From positions 124,001 to 188,000 of the forward strand of contig NZ_JAPVBH010000001.1 in assembly GCF_026967795.1 (NCBI RefSeq): 64,000 bases of DNA, given 5' to 3'. This DNA comes from Modestobacter sp. VKM Ac-2986. GTDB taxonomy: Bacteria > Actinomycetota > Actinomycetes > Mycobacteriales > Geodermatophilaceae. Positions 7,084 through 40,402 of the stretch are shown one piece after another. Below the pieces are notes generated by a model that had not been told where the DNA came from, did not search any database, and saw only the letters and a list, made by a program, of their open reading frames with translations. The position numbers and the translations under genes were made by a program. Within the stretch, counting starts at the first letter, position 1; every line of letters starts with the position of its first letter.

Positions 7084-8235
7084 TCACTTCTCGGCGACGA
7101 CGGCGGCGACCTGGCTGACCGACTCGGTCAGGGCGGTGATGGAGTCGCTGAGCCCGCGCAGCTGGTCCTGCGTGAGCTGCTCGTAGGACGTCCACCCGTC
7201 ACCGGAACGGTACTGGGCCAGCTCCTCTTCCGTGGCGGCGAACCGTTCGTCGATCTCGGCCACCAGCTCGGCGTCGTGCGTCTCCAGGTAGGGCCGCAGC
7301 GCCTGGACGGCGGCCTCGGAGCCCTCGAGGTTGGCCGAGAAGTCCCACAGGTCGGTGTGGCTGTAGCGGTCCTCCTCGCCGGTGATCTTGCCGGTGGCGA
7401 TCTCGTCGAGCAGCGCCTTGGCGCCGTTGGCCAGCTGCAGCGGGTCGAGGGTCACGTCGTTCGCCAGCGTCACGATCTCCCCGACGTCGACCTTCAGCCG
7501 GTCGGCGTAGGGCCCCATGTCCGAGACGTCGCCGGTCTCCCACAGCGCCTTCTCGATGCGGTGGAAGCCGGTGAAGTCCTCACCCTCGGCCTGGTCGCCC
7601 TCGCGGCCGTCGATGACCGGGTCCAGGTCACCGAAGACCTCCGCGACCGGCTCGATCCGCTCCCAGTAGGTGCGGGCGACCGGGAACAGCGCCTTGGCTC
7701 CCTCGATGTCGCCGGCCTTGACGGCGTCGGTGAAGGCGGTGGTCCGCTCCAGCAGCGCGCCGGTCTGGGACTGCACGTAGCGCTGGTAGTCCACGCCGGC
7801 CTGGGCCAGCGACTCGTCCTGGCTCAGCGCGGGGGCCTCGCCGGAGACGACGAGCGCCGAGCGGATGCCGTCGCCGATCATGCCGGGCTTGCAGGCGGTC
7901 TCGTACTGACCGGCCGGCAGCTCGACGCGGAGCTCGCGGGCCACGCCGGGGGCGATGTTCTCGACCTCGGCCATCACCCGGTCGCCGTCGGCGTAGACGT
8001 AGAACTCGGTGACCTTGCTGCCGGAGTTGGTGACGGTGAACTGGTGGACGCCGGCGGGCAGCTCGGTCGAGGCCACGTCGCAGGCGTCGTCGCTGGCGGC
8101 GACCGCGATGTCGTCGGCGGCCGGGGCGGCGGCGCCGGGGGCGTCGGCCCCCTCGTCCCCGCAGGCGGCGAGGGTGAGGGTGGTCAGCCCGGCCAGGACG
8201 GCCAGGGCGGTACGCCTACGAGCGGGCTTCGACAT
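7084..8235 (-). CDS. efeO: Iron uptake lipoprotein EfeO (cupredoxin plus M75/imelysin domain)
   Basis: 383 residues from ATG at 8235. A lipoprotein signal peptide with lipobox LTLAAC puts the mature N-terminal cysteine at about residue 25. Residues ~45-135 form a cupredoxin-like domain, with the ligand segment ETACKPGM. Residues ~150-383 form the M75 peptidase-like (imelysin) domain with the HxxE motif in FHRIEKALW. EfeO is the periplasmic or surface iron-binding component that passes iron to EfeU. The start overlaps the end of efeU by 20 bp, indicating translational coupling. Confidence 0.95.
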   Translation of the reverse strand: MSKPARRRTALAVLAGLTTLTLAACGDEGADAPGAAAPAADDIAVAASDDACDVASTELPAGVHQFTVTNSGSKVTEFYVYADGDRVMAEVENIAPGVARELRVELPAGQYETACKPGMIGDGIRSALVVSGEAPALSQDESLAQAGVDYQRYVQSQTGALLERTTAFTDAVKAGDIEGAKALFPVARTYWERIEPVAEVFGDLDPVIDGREGDQAEGEDFTGFHRIEKALWETGDVSDMGPYADRLKVDVGEIVTLANDVTLDPLQLANGAKALLDEIATGKITGEEDRYSHTDLWDFSANLEGSEAAVQALRPYLETHDAELVAEIDERFAATEEELAQYRSGDGWTSYEQLTQDQLRGLSDSITALTESVSQVAAVVAEK

Positions 8236-9094
8236 GCTGCGGGGTCTCCGAGACGACGGGGGCCGGCGTGCTGCCGGCCGTGTTCTTGCGGGCGGGGAGG
8301 AGGAAGAGCACGAGCACCGGCACCAGGTAGGCGAGCCAGGCGAGGGTCTCCAGCACGGTGGGCTGGGGGGTGATGTTGAACAGGCCGGCGGCCAGGGCGC
8401 CGTACCAGCTGCCCGGGTCGAGCCAGCCGGAGGCGTCGAAGGCCAGCGTGGACAGCCCCGGCAGGACGCCGGCCTCCTGGAAGTCGTGCACGGCGTACTT
8501 GAAGATCCCGGCGGCGACGAGGACGAGCAGCGCACCGCTGACCATGAAGAACCGGGACAGGTCGATCCGGATCGCCCCGGCGTACAGGCCGACCCCGACG
8601 ACGACGGCGGTCAGCAGGCCGGCGCCCAGGCCCAGCAGCGGCGCCGAGGTGGTCGCGCCCTGCGCGGAGGCGAAGAACAGCAGCGTCGTCTCCAGGCCCT
8701 CGCGGGCCACGGAGAGGAACGCGATGCCGACGACGGCGCCGACACCCAGCCCGATCGCGCCGTCCAGCTTCCCGCGCAGCTCACCGGACAGCCGGCGGGC
8801 GGTGCGCCGCATCCAGAACACCATCCAGGTGACCAGCGCGACGGCGAGCACGGAGGTGACCGCGTCGAAGAGCTCCTGCTCGGGGCCGCCGAGCACGGTC
8901 GTGGACACGTAGCTCAGCGCCCAGCCGAAGCCGATCGACAGCGCGGCCGCCGCGCCCACCCCGGCCCACACGGGCAGCAGGTGCCGGCGACGTCCGGTCT
9001 TGACCAGGTAGGCGACCAGCACGCTGACGATGAGGACCATCTCCAGGCCCTCACGCAGACCGATGAGGTAGCTGGCGGCGAACACCTGCCCCAT
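8216..9094 (-). CDS. efeU: High-affinity iron permease EfeU (FTR1 family)
   Basis: 292 residues from ATG at 9094, preceded by GGAGG. Two REGLE motifs are present (LIGLREGLEMVL near residue 15 and SVAREGLETTLL near residue 130), the iron-coordinating signature of the Ftr1p/EfeU family, within about seven hydrophobic helices. It is the membrane channel of the EfeUOB system and the first gene of the operon efeU-efeO-efeB. Regulation by iron is indicated by a DtxR/IdeR-type box 36 bp upstream. Confidence 0.96.
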   Translation of the reverse strand: MGQVFAASYLIGLREGLEMVLIVSVLVAYLVKTGRRRHLLPVWAGVGAAAALSIGFGWALSYVSTTVLGGPEQELFDAVTSVLAVALVTWMVFWMRRTARRLSGELRGKLDGAIGLGVGAVVGIAFLSVAREGLETTLLFFASAQGATTSAPLLGLGAGLLTAVVVGVGLYAGAIRIDLSRFFMVSGALLVLVAAGIFKYAVHDFQEAGVLPGLSTLAFDASGWLDPGSWYGALAAGLFNITPQPTVLETLAWLAYLVPVLVLFLLPARKNTAGSTPAPVVSETPQHVEARS

Positions 9095-9250: not shown

Positions 9251-10147
9251 TCAGCGCTGGTTGGGCACGATCGCCAGGTCGCTGACCTGGCGGTCCCGGG
9301 GGAAGTCGCCCTCCGCCGTGACCCGGCCGGTCAGCAGCGACACCTCGTAGAGGCCGTACCGGTTCCCGACCCGCAGGGTGACGTAGGGGAACAGGTCCAC
9401 CGTGCTGCCCTTGCGCACCGAGCTGTAGATGTCGAAGCCGGCGTCCCCGGTGGCGTCGACCCCGAGCTTGCCGGTGGCGGCCAGCACCCCGGCGTTGGCC
9501 GGGGACTGGATGACGACCTGGTCCAGCGCGGTGTCCACGTCGAACAGCGTCGTGGCCGTCGCGGCGTCCGCGTCGTTGTTCGTGTAGGCGGCCGCGGTGA
9601 CGCCGGTGGCCGTCGTGGGCGTGGTGGCCGGGGCCACCGCCGGGTAGCTGAGCGTGCCGTCGACGAGGGTGCCGCCTTGTGCGTCGACGTTGTGCCGCAG
9701 GTTCTGGCCGGTGTTGCTGACGATCCGGAGCCGGTCGACCACGGGGTTGAAGTCCACCCCGAAGGCCGTGCCGGCCAGGGCGGTGCTCAGCTGGGAGACC
9801 TTCGTGGCCGTCGCGTCGACCAGCGTGTAGACCCCACCCTTGTCGCCCACGCCGTACAGCTTGCCGTTGGCCGGGCGGTGGTCGATGCCCACCAGCCGGG
9901 TGTCCCCGGCCAGGCCGCGGACGCCGCCGAGGTCGCGGGCCCGCTCCGGCCGGTCGGTGTCGAAGGAGACCAGCCGGAGGCCGTCGGGGGTCAGGCCGAC
10001 CGCCTTCAGCCGGTCTCCCTGGGACCCACTGGCGGCGGGCTGGCTCCCGGGCTGGCCGTTCCCCGTGGCGAGGGCGGCGGGCGCGGTGACCAGCACGAGA
10101 CCGAGCACAGCCGCTCCGGTGGCGACCCGCGTGCGCATCCTGGACAT
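9251..10147 (-). CDS. Exported DUF4394-domain protein
   Basis: 298 residues from ATG at 10147 with AGGAG upstream. A Sec signal peptide (VATGAAVLGLVLVTAPAALA) ends near residue 27. The mature region matches DUF4394: repeated beta-strand blocks such as LVGIDHRPANGKLYGVG, GVDFNPVVDRLRIVSNTGQNLR, TLFDVDTALDQVVIQSP and GLYEVSLLTGRVTAEG, which look like a beta-propeller. Function is unknown; the family is secreted and common in soil actinobacteria and proteobacteria. It is a single-gene unit with its own terminator hairpin. Confidence 0.88.
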   Translation of the reverse strand: MSRMRTRVATGAAVLGLVLVTAPAALATGNGQPGSQPAASGSQGDRLKAVGLTPDGLRLVSFDTDRPERARDLGGVRGLAGDTRLVGIDHRPANGKLYGVGDKGGVYTLVDATATKVSQLSTALAGTAFGVDFNPVVDRLRIVSNTGQNLRHNVDAQGGTLVDGTLSYPAVAPATTPTTATGVTAAAYTNNDADAATATTLFDVDTALDQVVIQSPANAGVLAATGKLGVDATGDAGFDIYSSVRKGSTVDLFPYVTLRVGNRYGLYEVSLLTGRVTAEGDFPRDRQVSDLAIVPNQR

Positions 10148-10316
10148 GGTGATCTCCTGGTGTCGGTACTGCCTGGACGGACCAGGGCCGGGCCGTCCGC
10201 GCCGGCCCCGTGGAGGACCGTCGTCAGGGAGTACGCAGCCCGAGGCCCGGGCGTTGAACCGGGGCCGGAGAATTCTCGGGGACGCCCCACCGCGCCGCAC
10301 GACCGAGAGGACGACG

Positions 10317-11096
10317 ATGTCCGAGCCCACCGTCACCCGCACCGACACCGGCGGCGTCGCGACGCTGACCCTGCTGCGACCGGCGCTGACCTCCCGGCTG
10401 CGCACCGAGCTGCTGGCCGTCGTCCGGGAGCTCTCGGCCGACGCGTCGGTGCGCGCGGTCGTGCTCACCGGCAGCGGTCGGGCGTTCTGCCTGGGCCAGG
10501 ACCTCACCGAGCACGCCGAGGTGCTCCGCGGCGGGGCCGCCGACTCCCTCGGGGTCGTGGCCGCCGAGTACAACCCGCTGCTGCTGGCGCTGGCCGCGGT
10601 GCCGGTGCCGGTGGTCGTCGGGGTCAACGGTGCCTGTGCCGGGGCCGGGCTGGGGCTGGCGCTGGCCGGTGACCTGCGGGTCGCCGCCGCCGGGGCCAAG
10701 CTCAGCACCGCGTTCGCCGGCATCGGGCTGTCCAGCGACTCGGCGGTCGCCGCCCGGCTGGTGCACTGCGTCGGCGGGTCCCGGGCCGCCGAGCTGCTCC
10801 TGCTGGCCGAGCCCTTCACCGCCGAGACCGCCGCCGGCTGGGGTCTGGTGCACCGCGTCGTCCCGGTAGAGGAGGTGCACGCCGAGGCGCAGGCGCTCGC
10901 CACCCGGCTGGCCACCGGACCGACGGCCGCGTACCGGGCGGTGAAGACGGTGCTGGCCACCGCCGGCACCGACACGCTGAAGACGACGCTGGCCCTGGAG
11001 GCGGGACTGCAGGGCGAGTTGGGCGCGACCGCCGACCACCGCGAGGCCGTCGAGGCGTTCCTGGCCAAGCGGCCGGCCCGGTTCACCGGCCGCTGA
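10317..11096 (+). CDS. Enoyl-CoA hydratase/isomerase family protein
   Basis: 259 residues from ATG at 10317. Crotonase-fold signatures: GRAFCLGQDLTEH (first oxyanion-hole strand) and VNGACAGAGLGLALAGDLRVA (second oxyanion-hole glycine region), then FAGIGLSSDSA and the C-terminal GPTAAYRAVK helix. FCxGQDL resembles the PaaG group (epoxyphenylacetyl-CoA isomerases) more than classic hydratases, which usually have FxAGADI, but no paa genes are nearby. The position usually held by the hydratase Glu (GLxPDxG/E) reads IGLSSDSA, so isomerase chemistry is more likely than simple hydration (inference). Confidence 0.88.
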   Translation: MSEPTVTRTDTGGVATLTLLRPALTSRLRTELLAVVRELSADASVRAVVLTGSGRAFCLGQDLTEHAEVLRGGAADSLGVVAAEYNPLLLALAAVPVPVVVGVNGACAGAGLGLALAGDLRVAAAGAKLSTAFAGIGLSSDSAVAARLVHCVGGSRAAELLLLAEPFTAETAAGWGLVHRVVPVEEVHAEAQALATRLATGPTAAYRAVKTVLATAGTDTLKTTLALEAGLQGELGATADHREAVEAFLAKRPARFTGR

Positions 11097-12347: not shown

Positions 12348-12479
12348 GACCTCTTGTCGGCAGCCGACCGCCCGTGGTTGAGCGTGCAACCCGGACGTCA
12401 CACGACCGGATGCCTGCCCGACACGTGCGCGCCCCGGCATGCGACGGTGCAGACCCCACCCCACCCCCTGGAGGTCCCG

Positions 12480-13112
12480 GTGCAGCTCACCAAGCACGGA
12501 CACGCCTGCGTCGTCCTCTCCGCCGACGACCGCCGGCTGGTCGTCGACCCCGGCGCGTTCACCGCGGACGACGCCTGGGCCGGCGCCTCGGCGCTGCTGG
12601 TCACCCACGAGCACGCCGACCACCTCGTCCCGGCGAAGGTGCGGGCCGCCCTGGACGCCGACCCGGCCCTGGAGGTGTGGACCAACACCTCGGTCGCCGA
12701 GCAGCTGGACCACGCCCGGGTGCACGCCGTCGGCCACGGGGACACCGTCACCGCCGCAGGCTTCGAGGTCTCCGTGCACGGCGAGTGGCACGCGGTCATC
12801 CACCCCGACCTCCCGCGGGTGCGCAACGTCGGGTTCCTGGTGGAGGGGCAGGTGTTCCACCCCGGCGACGCGCTGACCGTCCCGGAGGTCGCCGTCCCGA
12901 CGCTGCTGCTGCCGGCGCACGCGCCCTGGTCCAGGACCGGGGAGCTGATCGACTACCTGCGCGAGGTGCGCGCCGAGCGGGCCCTCGCGGTGCACGACGG
13001 GCTGCTCAACGACACCGGCCTCGGTCTGCTCGCCGGCCTGTTCGGCGAGCGCGGCCCGGGTCAGCCCACGCCCTACGAGCGGCTGAGCCCCGGCGAGTCC
13101 GTCGACGTCTGA
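12480..13112 (+). CDS. MBL-fold metal-dependent hydrolase (UlaG-like)
   Basis: 210 residues from GTG at 12480 with GGAGG upstream. VTHEHADHL at about residue 41 is the metallo-beta-lactamase HxHxDH motif; DPG, HPGD and PAHAPW supply the other metal-ligand regions, and VHDG lies near the C-terminus. The size and the opening TKHGHACVVL with no lactamase insert fit the COG2220 (UlaG-like) group of cytosolic hydrolases, whose substrates are mostly unknown. Its 3' end overlaps the convergent EAL gene by 40 bp. Confidence 0.88.
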   Translation: MQLTKHGHACVVLSADDRRLVVDPGAFTADDAWAGASALLVTHEHADHLVPAKVRAALDADPALEVWTNTSVAEQLDHARVHAVGHGDTVTAAGFEVSVHGEWHAVIHPDLPRVRNVGFLVEGQVFHPGDALTVPEVAVPTLLLPAHAPWSRTGELIDYLREVRAERALAVHDGLLNDTGLGLLAGLFGERGPGQPTPYERLSPGESVDV

Positions 13113-14908
13113 GCCGGCAGGGGCACCCGGGCGCTCCCGAGCCGGGCGTCCAGCCGGGCGAGCTGGAGCTCGTAGCGCCGGCTGCGCTCCTGCTCGGTGA
13201 CCAGGGCGCGCTCGGCCTCCACCTGCGCGGTGACGTCGGTCTGGACGCCGATGTACCGCGTGACCCGCCCGTCGGCGTCGGTGACCGGGGTCAGGTGGCA
13301 CTCGTTCCACCACGTGCTGCCGTCGGCCCGGCCGTTGAGCAGCACCTCGCGCACCTCCTCCCCCGCCTCGATCGCGGCGCGGAGCCGGCCGACCGCAGCC
13401 GGGTCGGTGTCCGGCAGCTGGAGGAAACGGCAGTTGCGGCCCAGCACCTCCGCGGCGGGATGGCCCGACATCCGCTCGAACGCGGGGTTGACGTAGACCA
13501 GGGGCTGGTCGGGCAGCCGGAGGTCGACGACGGTGACCCCGGTGTCGATCGCGGCCAGCGCCCGGTGCAGCAGCCCCTCGCCGGGGTCACCGGCCCCGAG
13601 CGGGACGTTCAGGCGGGGGACGGCCGCCGGGGCGGGTGCCGTGGGCTCCTCCGGCCGGGGCGCCACCCGGGACAGCAGCGCCCGCGCGGCGCGCACGACG
13701 GTGTCCCGCTCGTAGGTCAGCGCGAAGGCGAAGCGCCGCTCGCTCTCCGCCCCGGTGTCGCCCAGGTCGCGGGCCAGCAGGGCGGCGCTGAAGTGCGGGC
13801 TCAGCACCACGATGTCCCACTCGCTGCGCACCGGGTCGTCGGCCCGCAGGTCGGCGTTGCGCAGGCCCGGGATCGGCTCGCCGGTCAGGTCCTCGGCCAG
13901 CGCGGCGACGAACCCCACCCGCTCGACGACGTCCCGGTAGCGCAGCCGGGTGGCCGGGGTGACGTGCCCGGCGGTCTGGAAGGCGGTGACCAGCACCGAG
14001 GTCTCCCCCAGCCGCATGGCCTGCCGTTCCAGCTGCTTGCTCACCTCGACCAGCAGCGCCTTGGGCGCCTCCCGCACCGGCGCACCGGGCGGCAGGCACG
14101 CGAACGGCGACACGGCGTCGCACGGCGGGTCGACGGGGTGCGGTGGGGGCAGCCGCAGCGCACCCGCCCGCCGGCCGGCCGCGAGCCCGGTGCCGGGACG
14201 GCCGAAGAGCCAGCCCTGCCCGAGGGTCGCGCCCAGCGCCCGGGCCGTGGCCAGGTGCTGGTCGTTCTCGATCCCCTCGGCCAGCAGCACCGCGCCGCTG
14301 GACTCCGCGTAGGCGTTGACCGCGTTCATGATCTCCGCGATCGCCGGGCCGGGGCGCTCCTGCACCAGCCGCAGGTCCAGCTTCACCACGTCCGGGCGCA
14401 GCAGCGGCATGAACGCCAGGGACAGCGACTCCGCGCCGACGTCGTCCAGGGCGACCGCCCAGCCGTGCTCGCGGACCCGGGCCACGGTGCGCAGCAGCTC
14501 CGCCGGTCGGGCGGCCAGCGCCCGCTCGGTGATCTCCAGGACCACCTGCAGGCTGCCGGCCCAGCGGTCGGTCCGGTCGAACAGCGTGGCCAGCGGCTCC
14601 TCGTCCAGCGCGTCGGGCTCGACGTTGACGAAGACGGTCAGCGGCGCGAGCAGGCCCGCGCGGACCGCGCCCCGCAGCGCCGCGGCCCGGCAGGCCTGGT
14701 CCAGCTCGGTCAGGCACCCCTCGGCCCGGGCGGCGGCGAACAGGTCGTCGGGTGCGTGCAGCGGACCCTCCGGGCCCCGGGCGAGCGCCTCGTAGGCGAC
14801 CACCGTGCCGCTGTCGAGCTCCACGATCGGCTGGAAGACGCTGGTCACGGACCGGTCGTCGAGCACGGCGCGCACGCCGGACACCGGACGTCCACCCAAC
14901 TGCTGCAC
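13073..14908 (-). CDS. EAL-DICT-LOV protein: putative blue-light-regulated c-di-GMP phosphodiesterase
   Basis: 611 residues from GTG at 14908, which has GGAGGGGG eight bases upstream; a longer reading from 14956 is possible but lacks such a site. Residues ~15-260 are an EAL domain with the catalytic set intact: YEALAR (Glu40), FVNVEP, VLEITE, ALDDVG, VKLD, AEGIEN and GQGWLFGRP. Residues ~285-430 match a DICT sensory domain (VSKQLERQAMRLGETSVLV; DIVVLSPHFSAALLARDLG). Residues ~440-560 are a LOV-type PAS domain with the photoactive cysteine in GRNCRFLQ (Cys493) and the FMN contacts LLN, WWN and GVQ. A coiled-coil-like helix (AQVEAERALVTEQERSRRYELQLARL) follows. The expected reaction is c-di-GMP to pGpG under blue-light control (inference). 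Divergent from a GAF protein gene. Confidence 0.9.
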   Translation of the reverse strand: MQQLGGRPVSGVRAVLDDRSVTSVFQPIVELDSGTVVAYEALARGPEGPLHAPDDLFAAARAEGCLTELDQACRAAALRGAVRAGLLAPLTVFVNVEPDALDEEPLATLFDRTDRWAGSLQVVLEITERALAARPAELLRTVARVREHGWAVALDDVGAESLSLAFMPLLRPDVVKLDLRLVQERPGPAIAEIMNAVNAYAESSGAVLLAEGIENDQHLATARALGATLGQGWLFGRPGTGLAAGRRAGALRLPPPHPVDPPCDAVSPFACLPPGAPVREAPKALLVEVSKQLERQAMRLGETSVLVTAFQTAGHVTPATRLRYRDVVERVGFVAALAEDLTGEPIPGLRNADLRADDPVRSEWDIVVLSPHFSAALLARDLGDTGAESERRFAFALTYERDTVVRAARALLSRVAPRPEEPTAPAPAAVPRLNVPLGAGDPGEGLLHRALAAIDTGVTVVDLRLPDQPLVYVNPAFERMSGHPAAEVLGRNCRFLQLPDTDPAAVGRLRAAIEAGEEVREVLLNGRADGSTWWNECHLTPVTDADGRVTRYIGVQTDVTAQVEAERALVTEQERSRRYELQLARLDARLGSARVPLPAQTSTDSPGLSRS

Positions 14909-15024
14909 ATCGCCCCCTCCCGGCGTCCGGCACAGGCACCTGGAGTCTGACAGCATCTGCCTGCTCCCAACGGGTGAGCGTTCTCAGGTCGGCCGACAGC
15001 GACGACACGAGGCAGGGGGACGCG

Positions 15025-16143
15025 ATGGGCACCGACTACGAACTGCCCACCTGGGCCCCCCTCCCGGCGGTGGCCGACGAGGGATTCGACCGGCTGGCCG
15101 CGACCGTGGCCCGCACGCTGGGTGTCGACCGGTCGCTCGTCGTCCTGGTCTCCAAGGCCGGCCAGGTCCTCCCCGGGGCCTTCGGGCTGCCCGAGCCGTG
15201 GGCGACCCGCCGGTCGATGCCGCTGAGCCACTCGCTGAGCCAGCGGGTGACCGCGACCGGGCGACCACTGGTGCTGCGGGACGCGCGGGAGGACCCGGCG
15301 ACCGCGGAGAGCCCCTCGGTGCAGGAGCTGGGCGTGGTCGCCTACGCCGGGATGCCGCTGTGGGGGGCGCAGGGCCGGCCGATCGGGGTCCTGGTCGCCT
15401 GCGACCTGCAGCCCCGGGACTGGACGGCGGCCGAGCTGGACACGCTGAGCCGGCTGGCCGCCGAGGGCTCCCGCCAGCTGCAGGTGCAGGCCGTCGAGCT
15501 GGCCGAGCGCGAGGCCCTGGCCGCCGCCGTCCGGGACGACGGCACGGCCCGGGCCGCGGCCGAGCGCGCGCGCAGCATGCTGGTCGAGGCCGAGGCCGAG
15601 GCCGACCGCACCCGGCTGGTCGCCCGGCTCAGCGGCGCACTGCTGACCGCCGGCTCGCTGCCCGAGGTGCTCCGCGCGGTCGACCGGTTCGTGCGCTCAC
15701 CGCTGGGCAGCCGCACGGTGCTGCTGGGCGTGGCCGAGTCCGGCTGCACCGACGTGCGCGTCTGGTCGGTGACCGCCGGCGCCCCGCCCCCGGCCGAGCC
15801 GGTGGCGACCCTGGCGCTCACCGACCCGCACCCGCTCACCGCCGCGATGACCGAGCGCCGGCTGGTCACCGTGGCGACCCGGGCCGAGGGCAGCGGCGAG
15901 TTCCCGCAGCTGGCGCCGCTGGGCCCCGACACCGAGACGGTGCTGGCCGCGCCGCTGGTGCTGGGCCAGCACAGCGCGATCGGGGCGCTGGCGCTGGGCT
16001 GGACCCAGCGGCGCGAGCTGGACGCCTCGGTGTGCGCGGTCGCCGCCGACCTGGCCCTGCACGTGGGCCACGCGCTGGACCGGCAGCTGCTGCAGGAGCA
16101 CCGCCGGTGGCTGGCCACCGGCCCGGCGGACCCGGTCACCTGA
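15025..16143 (+). CDS. Tandem GAF-domain sensor protein without an output domain
   Basis: 372 residues from ATG at 15025 (AGGCAGGGGG upstream). Residues ~15-155 form a GAF domain (FDRLAATVARTLGVDRSLVVLV, VAYAGMPLWGAQGRPIGVLVACD). Residues ~155-205 are an alanine/glutamate-rich coiled coil (AELAEREALAAAVRDDGTARA). Residues ~205-360 are a second GAF-like domain (SGALLTAGSLPEVLRAVDRFV, VLAAPLVLGQHSAIGALALGW). No GGDEF, EAL, kinase or HTH domain follows, so it must act through a partner. It is divergent from the EAL-DICT-LOV gene with starts 117 bp apart, so shared regulation is likely. Ligand unknown. Confidence 0.82.
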   Translation: MGTDYELPTWAPLPAVADEGFDRLAATVARTLGVDRSLVVLVSKAGQVLPGAFGLPEPWATRRSMPLSHSLSQRVTATGRPLVLRDAREDPATAESPSVQELGVVAYAGMPLWGAQGRPIGVLVACDLQPRDWTAAELDTLSRLAAEGSRQLQVQAVELAEREALAAAVRDDGTARAAAERARSMLVEAEAEADRTRLVARLSGALLTAGSLPEVLRAVDRFVRSPLGSRTVLLGVAESGCTDVRVWSVTAGAPPPAEPVATLALTDPHPLTAAMTERRLVTVATRAEGSGEFPQLAPLGPDTETVLAAPLVLGQHSAIGALALGWTQRRELDASVCAVAADLALHVGHALDRQLLQEHRRWLATGPADPVT

Positions 16144-39633: not shown

Positions 39634-39956
39634 GGGACCACTCTCCCACTGACCACCCCCGCCCCGCTGGGTGCCCGTTCCTGCAGCCGCCCGGGCAGCC
39701 GTGCCGCGCACGGGCGGGCGGGCCGCCGGGCCCCGTCGGCCCGGGTGCGACCGCGGACGGGGCCGGTGCCCGGCGTCGACCTGGACCACACGCGCCCCTG
39801 CTCGCACCCGACTCGACGCACGGTGGACCCTCGACGTCGCGGAGGTGGTCGTCGGCCGGTGCACGCCGCGGCACCGACGTGGTGCGGGGTCGGCGGCGGC
39901 CGCGCAGGAGGACGGCCCCGGGTCCTGCACGGGGCCCCGTCGTCCTGGTGAGGGAG

Positions 39957-40029
39957 TGGAGACGAGGGGAATCGAACCCCTAACCCCCGCCTTGCAAAGG
40001 CGGTGCTCTGCCAATTGAGCTACGTCCCC
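39957..40029 (-). tRNA. tRNA-Ala (anticodon TGC)
   Basis: The reverse strand folds as a cloverleaf: acceptor GGGGACG/CGTCTCC (one G-U pair), D-arm GCTCAATTGGCAGAGC, anticodon stem CGCCT with loop TTTGCAA reading TGC, T-loop GGTTCGATTCC. Conserved position downstream of gyrA. Confidence 0.96.
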
Positions 40030-40071
40030 GGGCGGCGCGGCGGGCGCACCGGGTGGTTCAGTGCAGGTGGA

Positions 40072-40215
40072 TCACGAGGAGCGGGGGGTGCTGACCGCGT
40101 CCGGGCCGCTGGTGGCCTGGGCCCAGAGGTCGGCCTCGCCCTTGGTGGACGTGCGCTTGCGGACCGCCACCACGGTACCGGCAGCGAGCGCTGCCACCAC
40201 CAGCTTCTTCAGCAC
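40072..40215 (-). CDS. DLW-39 family small protein
   Basis: 47 residues from GTG at 40215 with a strong GAGGAGG upstream. The sequence begins MLKKLVVAALAAGTVVAVRK, a single hydrophobic helix, and then KGEADLWAQAT contains the defining DLW motif near residue 29. DLW-39 proteins are tiny conserved actinobacterial proteins encoded next to tRNA-Ala/tRNA-Ile near gyrA, as here. The function is unknown; one membrane helix with a short basic-acidic tail is all that can be seen. Confidence 0.88.
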   Translation of the reverse strand: MLKKLVVAALAAGTVVAVRKRTSTKGEADLWAQATSGPDAVSTPRSS

Positions 40216-40328
40216 GCGGGACCTCCTCGGACTGTGGTGGCCACCGCGGCGCTGGTGACCGCTCGGGGGACCTCGGGCAGGGGAACCGGACCGCGTGGTC
40301 CTGGGTTCCCCCGCCGTCGGTGCACGGG

Positions 40329-40402
40329 TGGGCGTGGGAGGACTTGAACCTCCGGCCTCATCCTTATCAGGGATGCGCTCTAACCGCCTGAGCTACACGC
40401 CC
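40329..40402 (-). tRNA. tRNA-Ile (anticodon GAT)
   Basis: The reverse strand folds as a cloverleaf: acceptor GGGCGTG/CACGCCC, D-arm GCTCAGGCGGTTAGAGC, anticodon loop CTGATAA with GAT, T-loop GGTTCAAGTCC. Encoded between DLW-39 and the DUF3566 gene. Confidence 0.96.

What the first reader, a model, noticed from the sequence alone, without database searches (positions are those of the whole stretch)
13073..14908. EAL-DICT-LOV fusion: a likely blue-light-controlled c-di-GMP phosphodiesterase
Seen: an EAL domain with all expected catalytic residues (YEALAR, FVNVEP, LEITE, ALDDVG, VKLD, AEGIEN, GQGWLF), a DICT domain, and a PAS domain with a full LOV signature (GRNCRFLQ with the photoactive cysteine, plus LLN, WWN, GVQ flavin contacts). 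Known: LOV cysteines form a blue-light FMN adduct. LOV and BLUF are known to regulate EAL domains elsewhere, usually with the sensor at the N-terminus. The output-first order with a DICT linker and C-terminal LOV is an unusual arrangement that I do not recognise as characterised.
Basis: partly seen in the sequence, partly recalled or inferred. Interest (0 to 1): 0.75.

Follow-up and report, generated by a model that had tools for sequence, protein, structure and literature searches.

The report
Light-sensor enzyme that lost its cyclase
In the bacterium Modestobacter, a gene related to proteins that carry both an enzyme for destroying and an enzyme for making the signal molecule c-di-GMP, with a blue-light sensor between them, has lost the making half in place, leaving what looks like a light-sensing destroyer whose control by light is inferred but not shown.

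Summary
The minus strand of 13073-14908 (GTG start; frame open to ATG 14956) encodes EAL, DICT and a LOV-type PAS domain with all catalytic and photochemical residues. In 94 of 115 related frames the protein continues into a C-terminal GGDEF domain, joined to the LOV by a 35-residue linker as in light-activated diguanylate cyclases (LadC). The window protein belongs to one Modestobacter clade (12 intact genes plus one frameshifted) in which the GGDEF was deleted in situ; sister Modestobacter genes at the same locus still have it. Eleven of the 13 genomes with the short gene also have a GGDEF-bearing paralogue beside pheS. After the loss EAL, DICT and LOV stay under purifying selection while the LOV-to-GGDEF helix relaxes. 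Blastococcus rows with a ruined GGDEF motif also keep LOV and EAL. The likeliest reading is a c-di-GMP phosphodiesterase to which LOV photochemistry still matters, probably by LOV dimerisation or docking, since the DICT-LOV tether looks flexible. Light control, its sign and FMN binding are untested. New variant of a known kind.

The parts
13073..14908 (-). EAL-DICT-LOV protein from the GTG start preferred here (611 aa); the longest reading starts at ATG 14956 (627 aa; residue numbers below use this one)
14195..14860 (-). EAL domain (aa 33-254), catalytic residues intact; loop 6 reads DDVGAESLSL instead of DDFGTGYSSL
13766..14065 (-). DICT domain (aa 298-397 by Pfam; the modelled fold covers about aa 283-430)
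13571..13663 (-). Pro/Ala-rich tether between DICT and LOV (aa 432-462), low model confidence at 440-456, length-variable in relatives
13226..13570 (-). LOV (PAS) domain, aa 463-577
   Evidence: sequence; conserved in 97 of 98 rows
13133..13231 (-). J-alpha / coiled-coil helix (aa 576-608) that leads into GGDEF in the long relatives; relaxed in the short clade
13073..13112 (-). C-terminal tail encoded antisense to the last codons of the convergent MBL gene: taken as the scar of the GGDEF deletion
14943..14957 (-). DNA-level conserved gatgctgtcagactc upstream of the GTG start; candidate promoter/operator of the divergent pair
15025..16143 (+). divergently transcribed GAF-GAF protein, conserved neighbour at this locus
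12402..13112 (+). convergent metallo-beta-lactamase-fold gene (Lactamase_B_3), conserved neighbour; true start not determined

Best explanation
The gene encodes a c-di-GMP phosphodiesterase that carries a photoactive LOV domain at its C-terminus. SHOWN by comparison: it is a derived form of a four-domain protein, EAL-DICT-LOV-GGDEF, in which a LadC-like LOV-GGDEF module stands behind an EAL-DICT phosphodiesterase. In one Modestobacter clade the GGDEF was deleted in place, so the protein has no cyclase domain, while in most of these genomes a GGDEF-bearing paralogue persists elsewhere. INFERRED: the LOV binds FMN, forms the blue-light cysteinyl adduct and still influences the EAL. Since the LOV-to-GGDEF helix is no longer well constrained and the DICT-LOV tether looks flexible, the signal most likely acts through a light-dependent change in LOV-LOV dimerisation or docking that alters EAL dimer geometry, in the manner of inverted LOV receptors such as PAL, and not through a rigid helical lever. 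Losing the cyclase would turn a protein with opposed activities into one whose only c-di-GMP output is breakdown.
For: Domains and residues. Architecture: 94 of 115 frames EAL-DICT-LOV-GGDEF, 17 EAL-DICT-LOV, 4 EAL-DICT-GGDEF (13 of the 115 are repeat copies, removed). Tree: the short clade (12 short rows plus frameshifted fragment L136) has support 100/99; with its sister group L020, L135, L080, L132 it again has 100/99, nested among long forms. Same GAF and MBL neighbours in the 12 short loci and in the GGDEF-bearing L020/L041, where GGDEF lies between LOV and MBL. 40-bp overlap with the MBL 3' end in 10 of the 11 short loci measured (of 13). LOV-GGDEF linker 35 residues in 75 of 75 parsed rows, the LadC long-linker value (PMC10396304). 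dN/dS in the short clade: EAL 0.20, DICT 0.25, LOV 0.37, J-alpha 0.64 (0.35-0.94); J-alpha is 0.17, 0.16 and 0.26 in the three long groups with (almost) intact GGDEF motifs; Blastococcus rows with a broken motif: LOV 0.195, J-alpha 0.335.
Against: No biochemistry. The DICT-LOV tether varies from 31 to 73 residues and is Pro/Ala rich, with pLDDT under 50 at 440-456, so direct coupling is not obvious. EAL-DICT occurs without LOV elsewhere, and L132 at this same locus has no LOV. Loop 6 of the EAL departs from DDFGTGYSSL. The short clade is less constrained in EAL, DICT and LOV than the Modestobacter pheS-linked copies (EAL 0.20 against 0.08; LOV 0.37 against 0.26), although Geodermatophilus long copies are as loose or looser (EAL 0.25, LOV 0.44). 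The J-alpha comparison rests on 26 columns, and its interval for the short clade (0.35-0.94) overlaps those of the Geodermatophilus (0.12-0.40) and broken Blastococcus groups (0.16-0.49). L016 has lost catalytic E227. Invariance of all six photochemical residues in 12 rows is only modestly above chance given 52 of 101 LOV columns invariant (P 0.016).
Confidence: 0.5

Rival explanations
1. The EAL is controlled by DICT (unknown ligand); the LOV is a left-over dimeriser of the former LOV-GGDEF module whose photochemistry does not gate the phosphodiesterase.
For: EAL-DICT without LOV or GGDEF is found in several families of the order. The LOV-GGDEF linker is fixed at 35 residues while the DICT-LOV tether varies. 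At the same locus L132 has EAL-DICT only.
Against: All six photochemical residues, including the cysteine, are intact in 12 of 12 short rows, and LOV dN/dS of 0.37 is below that of the tail (0.92) and J-alpha (0.64). In Blastococcus rows with a broken GGDEF motif the LOV has the lowest dN/dS of the five groups (0.195).
Confidence: 0.27
2. The short protein acts mainly by pairing with its full-length paralogue: through LOV (or EAL) dimer contacts it forms heterodimers lacking one GGDEF, so that the light-activated cyclase, which needs two GGDEFs, is blocked.
For: 11 of 13 genomes with the short gene also have a GGDEF-bearing paralogue beside pheS (GGDEF and pheS seen in all 11: L002, the other 10; in G021 that copy is frame-broken). 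LadC proteins are dimers (PMC10396304, section 5 part 1).
Against: G017 (99% complete) has the short gene and no long paralogue in the listing; G002 likewise, but it is 80% complete. The EAL catalytic residues would not need keeping.
Confidence: 0.12
3. The gene is decaying: GGDEF deletion was the first step of erosion, and the protein has no selected light function now.
For: Graded losses at one locus: full (L020), part of GGDEF lost (L080), GGDEF lost (short clade), no LOV or GGDEF (L132), frame breaks in G003 and G021 draft assemblies. dN/dS is raised in EAL, DICT, LOV and J-alpha relative to the Modestobacter long copies.
Against: 12 intact orthologues with EAL dN/dS 0.20 and LOV 0.37, and 10 of 11 EAL key residues invariant, show continuing purifying selection.
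Confidence: 0.08

Closest known systems
LadC, LOV-activated diguanylate cyclases (LOV-GGDEF; MsLadC; PDB 8c05 is such a dark-state structure)
   Same: LOV domain of the same type (8c05 E 9.9e-28); the window protein's long relatives have LOV then GGDEF with the same 35-residue linker, and L002 has GGDEF and an RxxD motif
   Different: The window protein has no GGDEF and has EAL-DICT in front; LadC as described is LOV followed by GGDEF (passages and section 5 part 1 of PMC10396304 seen)
SL2 of Synechococcus elongatus (LOV, GGDEF, EAL), blue-light PDE
   Same: LOV and EAL in one chain; SL2 in its blue-light state hydrolyses c-di-GMP (passage of PMC8846402)
   Different: The passage lists LOV, GGDEF, EAL in that order and no DICT; the window protein has EAL first and no GGDEF
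PAL of Nakamurella multipartita (PAS-ANTAR-LOV, PDB 6hmj)
   Same: Actinobacterial, C-terminal LOV behind the effector; the LOV is one of the two closest PDB sequences and the first-ranked Foldseek hit, though with a poor overall superposition; called an inverted architecture (PMC12797116 passage)
   Different: Effector is an RNA-binding ANTAR domain, not an EAL
BlrP1 (BLUF-EAL)
   Same: Blue-light regulated EAL phosphodiesterase (passage of PMC8846402); EAL homologous (3gfx, E 3.3e-15)
   Different: Sensor is BLUF (FAD); the passage gives BLUF linked to EAL
DICT-HD-GYP phosphodiesterases of Microcystis
   Same: DICT next to a c-di-GMP phosphodiesterase (passage of PMC7063779)
   Different: HD-GYP output with an N-terminal DICT; no LOV mentioned there

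Membership tests
EAL c-di-GMP phosphodiesterase | EAL fold above Pfam cut-off with the conserved metal and catalytic residues | tested here: met
   Pfam 133.6 bits; residues intact; aligns with 2r6o and RocR. Which residues are catalytic is recalled
EAL c-di-GMP phosphodiesterase | canonical loop 6 (DDFGTGYSSL-like) | tested here: inconclusive
   DDVGAESLSL here; the 12 commonest variants, 83 of 102 rows, all begin DDVGA[DE]. That loop 6 matters for activity is recalled, not looked up
EAL c-di-GMP phosphodiesterase | hydrolyses c-di-GMP | not testable with these tools
   needs assay
LOV photoreceptor | NCRFLQ cysteine and Asn/Gln flavin contacts in a PAS_9 domain | tested here: met
   fold match TMt 0.95 to 9vf7_D. 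Which residues contact flavin is recalled
LOV photoreceptor | FMN binding and 450 nm adduct photocycle | not testable with these tools
   needs spectroscopy
LadC (LOV-GGDEF cyclase) | GGDEF domain after LOV via a 35- or 21-residue linker | tested here: not met
   window protein has no GGDEF; its long relatives do, linker 35 in 75 of 75 parsed rows
SL2-type LOV-GGDEF-EAL | LOV first, then GGDEF, then EAL (order as listed in PMC8846402) | tested here: not met
   order here is EAL-DICT-LOV, no GGDEF
YtvA_fam (NCBIfam NF052652) | score over the curated cut-off of 250 bits | tested here: not met
   119.1 bits, LOV part only
DICT domain (PF10069) | score over cut-off 23.8 bits | tested here: met
   37.5 bits

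The most novel reading that the evidence does not exclude
Natural reversal of a light output. Deleting the GGDEF from a blue-light cyclase/phosphodiesterase left a LOV that now signals backwards, to the EAL on its N-terminal side, through a flexible tether and without its J-alpha helix. One cell thus holds two paralogous LOV proteins of one family with opposite effects of blue light on c-di-GMP, and the loss of cyclase output happened separately in Blastococcus.
Probability: 0.3. Interest if true: 0.68.

Novelty: new variant of a known kind. Interest (0 to 1): 0.47.

Why it matters
How a LOV domain signals to an effector on its N-terminal side is open (PAL is studied as an inverted case, passage). 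This family is a natural experiment: the same receptor with an intact GGDEF, with a broken GGDEF motif (Blastococcus), with the GGDEF deleted (Modestobacter) and without LOV (L132, EAL-DICT alone), while the EAL is kept in the rows seen. It makes a testable case of an evolutionary sign change in c-di-GMP light signalling, in a family known for exposed rock and soil (general knowledge). Two searches of open-licence PMC (LOV + Geodermatophil- + photoreceptor; Modestobacter + c-di-GMP) each gave one paper, judged by its listing to be on another subject. A compact PDE-only LOV protein could also be useful as an optogenetic tool.

Tried and rejected
Considered and set aside: a LOV mis-call (a generic PAS) was rejected on residues and PDB matches. 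A pseudogene as the main reading was rejected on dN/dS. A functional C-terminal peptide (the conserved ...TDSPGARRA) was rejected because it is encoded antisense to the end of the MBL gene.

DICT as a PLD-superfamily enzyme: the AlphaFold2 model of DICT alone has NucT, Zucchini and polyphosphate kinase as its top 9 PDB hits, but only the first has E under 0.001 (2.5e-4, TM 0.52). A profile-profile test against 24 HKD segments from fetched loci gave no support (hhalign prob 0.1; LOV, EAL and GGDEF controls 0.0-0.1). The His in the corresponding loop is present in only 4 of 11 DICT domains from other proteins (15 fetched, 4 read in a wrong frame and dropped). Left as a fold-level lead.

The Glantz et al. 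2016 LOV survey, recalled as likely to list such architectures, is not held, so it may already contain this one. Paper searches for DICT with EAL and LOV, LOV-EAL / EAL-LOV, C-terminal LOV with c-di-GMP, Geodermatophil- with LOV, and Modestobacter with c-di-GMP returned no description of this architecture in the listings and passages I looked at; only open-licence PMC was searched. Papers seen as passages only: PMC12797116, PMC8846402, PMC8612252, PMC7063779, PMC4844311. PMC10396304: passages plus section 5 part 1 of 3. Other listed papers: listing only. None was read whole.

Limits: the genome-contig scan used EAL peptides (EITERA.., FVNVEP) and kept the best 80 of 171 loci, so EAL conservation in those rows is partly by selection. 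The listing is cut after E 1.3e-33. dN/dS is NG86 on non-independent pairs with column bootstraps; one of the 12 rows of the Blastococcus intact-GGDEF group (L035) reads AGDEF. The tree has 67 rows chosen by me: 57 of 102 non-redundant family rows plus 10 from fetched regions; only 3 of the 11 Blastococcus rows with a broken motif are in it. The 40-bp overlap was measured in 11 of 13 short loci (L015 and L017 not).
Full report
OBSERVATION. The frame at 13073..14956 (-) is open for 627 aa. Pfam finds EAL, DICT and PAS_9/PAS above their cut-offs, and the PAS region aligns over its length with true LOV domains, best with a histidine-kinase LOV (9vf7, Meiothermus ruber by its title) and with 6hmj, which PMC12797116 identifies as PAL (passage). 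NCBIfam's YtvA model matches the LOV part only, 119 bits against a cut-off of 250.

WHERE IT IS. The closest named loci are Modestobacter, Geodermatophilaceae (that search says records very near the window's own genome may be left out), so the genome is taken as Modestobacter. The own genome (G000, 4.19 Mb) holds a second copy, L002, 64% identical over residues 29-599, which continues into a GGDEF domain: 747 aa, EAL-DICT-PAS-GGDEF by Pfam. L002 lies between pheS and an rRNA-methyltransferase-like gene (both names are mine from the sequences, not database results).

THE FAMILY. In 115 frames holding EAL and DICT from loci L001-L117 the architectures were EAL-DICT-LOV-GGDEF 94, EAL-DICT-LOV 17 and EAL-DICT-GGDEF 4, the last four lying just behind a LOV-bearing copy. 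Removing repeat copies left 102 rows: 85 long, 13 short and 4 without LOV. Of the 13 short rows 12 are in the window's genus (code g1) and one, L111, is Quadrisphaera granulorum; there the frame stops soon after the J-alpha region with no GGDEF following it, so this looks like a separate loss. EAL residues are intact in essentially every row. LOV residues are intact in 97 of 98; the exception, L116 of Kineococcus rubinsiae, has lost LOV residues and the GGDEF motif and kept the EAL residues. By contrast, by my count's table, 17 of the 85 long rows do not read GG[DE]EF, among them 11 rows (L023, L034, L037, L049, L052, L065, L071, L073, L075, L093, L108) with motifs such as TRDSF or ARDSF; those with a species title, themselves or in an identical locus, are Blastococcus (L023 is unnamed). 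Part of the EAL conservation is by selection, since the second scan searched with EAL peptides; the first set was not so chosen.

ORIGIN OF THE SHORT FORM. A 67-row tree on EAL-DICT-LOV columns, rooted on a distant paralogue group, places the 12 Modestobacter short rows and one frameshifted short fragment (L136) in a clade with support 100/99. Its sister group consists of Modestobacter L020 and L135 (GGDEF present), L080 and L132; the two together have 100/99 and are nested among long forms. The GAF gene runs divergently on one side and the MBL gene convergently on the other in the 12 short loci, L020/L041, L132 and L136. L135 has the GAF gene, but no MBL match in the 1.5 kb held beyond its GGDEF; L080 has MBL, and its other side is off the contig. 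In L020/L041 the GGDEF lies between LOV and MBL. In 10 of the 11 short loci measured the frame runs 40 bp into the end of MBL; L010 stops 10 bp short of it. The conserved C-terminal peptide is thus a by-product of the neighbour's coding sequence, and I take it as the scar of the deletion. L080 has part of the GGDEF missing, and L132 has neither LOV nor GGDEF. The GGDEF was therefore deleted in situ, once in this clade by the simplest count.

PARALOGUES. Of 13 genomes with the short gene (12 intact, G021 frame-broken), 11 have a long paralogue's listing. I fetched the other ten genomes' copies (G009 has two): all 11 fetched copies have GGDEF, and in each of the ten genomes one copy lies beside pheS, as L002 does. 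The second G009 copy (L193) has no pheS in the stretch held, and the G021 copy is broken in frame. The two genomes without are G017 (99% complete) and G002 (80%).

WHAT THE LOV WAS BUILT FOR. In 75 of 85 long rows my pattern could measure the distance from the LOV DVT motif to the GGDEF DxLT motif, and it is 35 residues in all 75; the other 10 were not parsed and look alike by eye where printed. PMC10396304 (section 5, part 1) gives 35 residues for the long-linker LadC cyclases, which blue light activates by more than 10,000-fold. The long relatives therefore look like a LadC-type cyclase behind an EAL-DICT phosphodiesterase. EAL-DICT also occurs without LOV or GGDEF in other families of the order (L118-L125; open frames of about 410-490 aa in many rows), and DICT was found in 25 of 296 genomes sampled across the phylum, so EAL-DICT may be the older unit; I did not test that with a rooted tree.

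WHAT IS KEPT AFTER THE LOSS. NG86 dN/dS with column bootstraps, in the order EAL, DICT, LOV core, J-alpha (26 columns), GGDEF: short clade 0.20, 0.25, 0.37, 0.64 (0.35-0.94), none. Modestobacter pheS-linked long copies 0.08, 0.16, 0.26, 0.17, 0.38. Blastococcus with intact motif 0.13, 0.16, 0.26, 0.16, 0.30 (one of its 12 rows, L035, reads AGDEF). Blastococcus with broken motif 0.135, 0.115, 0.195, 0.335, 0.46. Geodermatophilus 0.25, 0.28, 0.44, 0.26, 0.52. So where GGDEF is lost or its motif ruined, the helix that served it tends to relax and the LOV does not go with it. This is the main reason to think that the LOV has a second client, the EAL (or DICT). Against this: the short clade is less constrained in every domain than the Modestobacter long copies (though Geodermatophilus long copies are as loose), the J-alpha sample is small with overlapping intervals against two groups, and the invariance of all six photochemical residues in the short clade is only modestly beyond chance (6 of 6 with 52 of 101 columns invariant, P 0.016; in the broken Blastococcus rows P 0.079).

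MECHANISM. The AlphaFold2 model (mean pLDDT 87, pTM 0.68) shows well-formed EAL, DICT and LOV domains and a long J-alpha helix, with pLDDT under 50 at 1-24, 440-456 and 621-625. The DICT-LOV tether varies between 31 and 73 residues in 98 rows and is about 57% Pro/Ala/Gly/Val. A fixed helical register, as between LOV and GGDEF, is unlikely there. I therefore favour a light-dependent LOV-LOV dimer change or docking onto EAL-DICT that alters the EAL dimer. That EAL activity can be set through the dimer is described for BlrP1 in PMC8846402 (passage). The sign is unknown; hydrolysis in the lit state, as in SL2 (same paper, passage), is the default guess. In the EAL, loop 6 reads DDVGAESLSL where 2r6o and RocR have DDFGTGYSSL and DDFGAGYSSL, a family-wide feature whose effect on rate is unknown.

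KNOWN AND NEW. LOV with GGDEF and EAL is well known (about 18% of 1390 bacterial LOV proteins carry GGDEF or GGDEF plus EAL, PMC4844311 passage); SL2 is a described blue-light PDE, PAL an inverted LOV receptor and LadC a LOV cyclase. The DICT domain is listed as having no discernible purpose (PMC8846402 passage) and is said to have been predicted to act in light response (PMC8612252 passage). No description of EAL-DICT-LOV(-GGDEF) came up in open-licence PMC in searches; the Glantz 2016 survey could not be read and may list it. I rate it a new variant of a known kind.

CONFIDENCE. Domain content 0.97; descent by in-situ GGDEF loss 0.93; active PDE 0.75; photoactive LOV 0.85; light gates the PDE 0.5; opposed light outputs of the two paralogues 0.3.

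Noticed in passing
window 13652-14116 (-), DICT domain: The AlphaFold2 model of DICT alone (pLDDT 93.5) resembles the phospholipase D / HKD superfamily fold: NucT (E 2.5e-4, TM 0.52), Zucchini and polyphosphate kinase fill the top 9 PDB hits (only the first under E 0.001), and a NucT-like nuclease is the top viral hit. A profile-profile test gave no sequence support and the histidine in the corresponding loop is in only 4 of 11 other DICT domains.
   Followed up: partly
L077, L089, L104, L110: Tandem pair in four Blastococcus loci: EAL-DICT-LOV-GGDEF followed closely by EAL-DICT-GGDEF without LOV and with a degenerate GGDEF motif.
   Followed up: no
L126-L130: A third paralogue group, about 46-48% identical, also EAL-DICT-LOV-GGDEF with NCRFL, in part of the genus and in other genera of the family, not listed for the window's genome.
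   Followed up: no
L016: One short-form protein has lost the catalytic E227 (LAAGIED) while the other key residues are intact; it may be an inactive EAL.
   Followed up: no
window 15025-16143 (+): GAF-GAF protein with no output domain found by Pfam, divergent from the EAL-DICT-LOV gene and kept beside it in short and long Modestobacter copies; possible partner.
   Followed up: partly
window 9374-10180 (-): DUF4394 protein with what looks like a signal-peptide start (my reading), between an FTR1 iron permease (8216-9094) and an enoyl-CoA-hydratase-like gene (about 10290-11096, by eye only).
   Followed up: no
window 39956-40402 (-): tRNA-Ala(tgc) and tRNA-Ile(gat) lie side by side with no rRNA found by Rfam in the window, although this pair often sits inside rRNA operons (general knowledge).
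   Followed up: no
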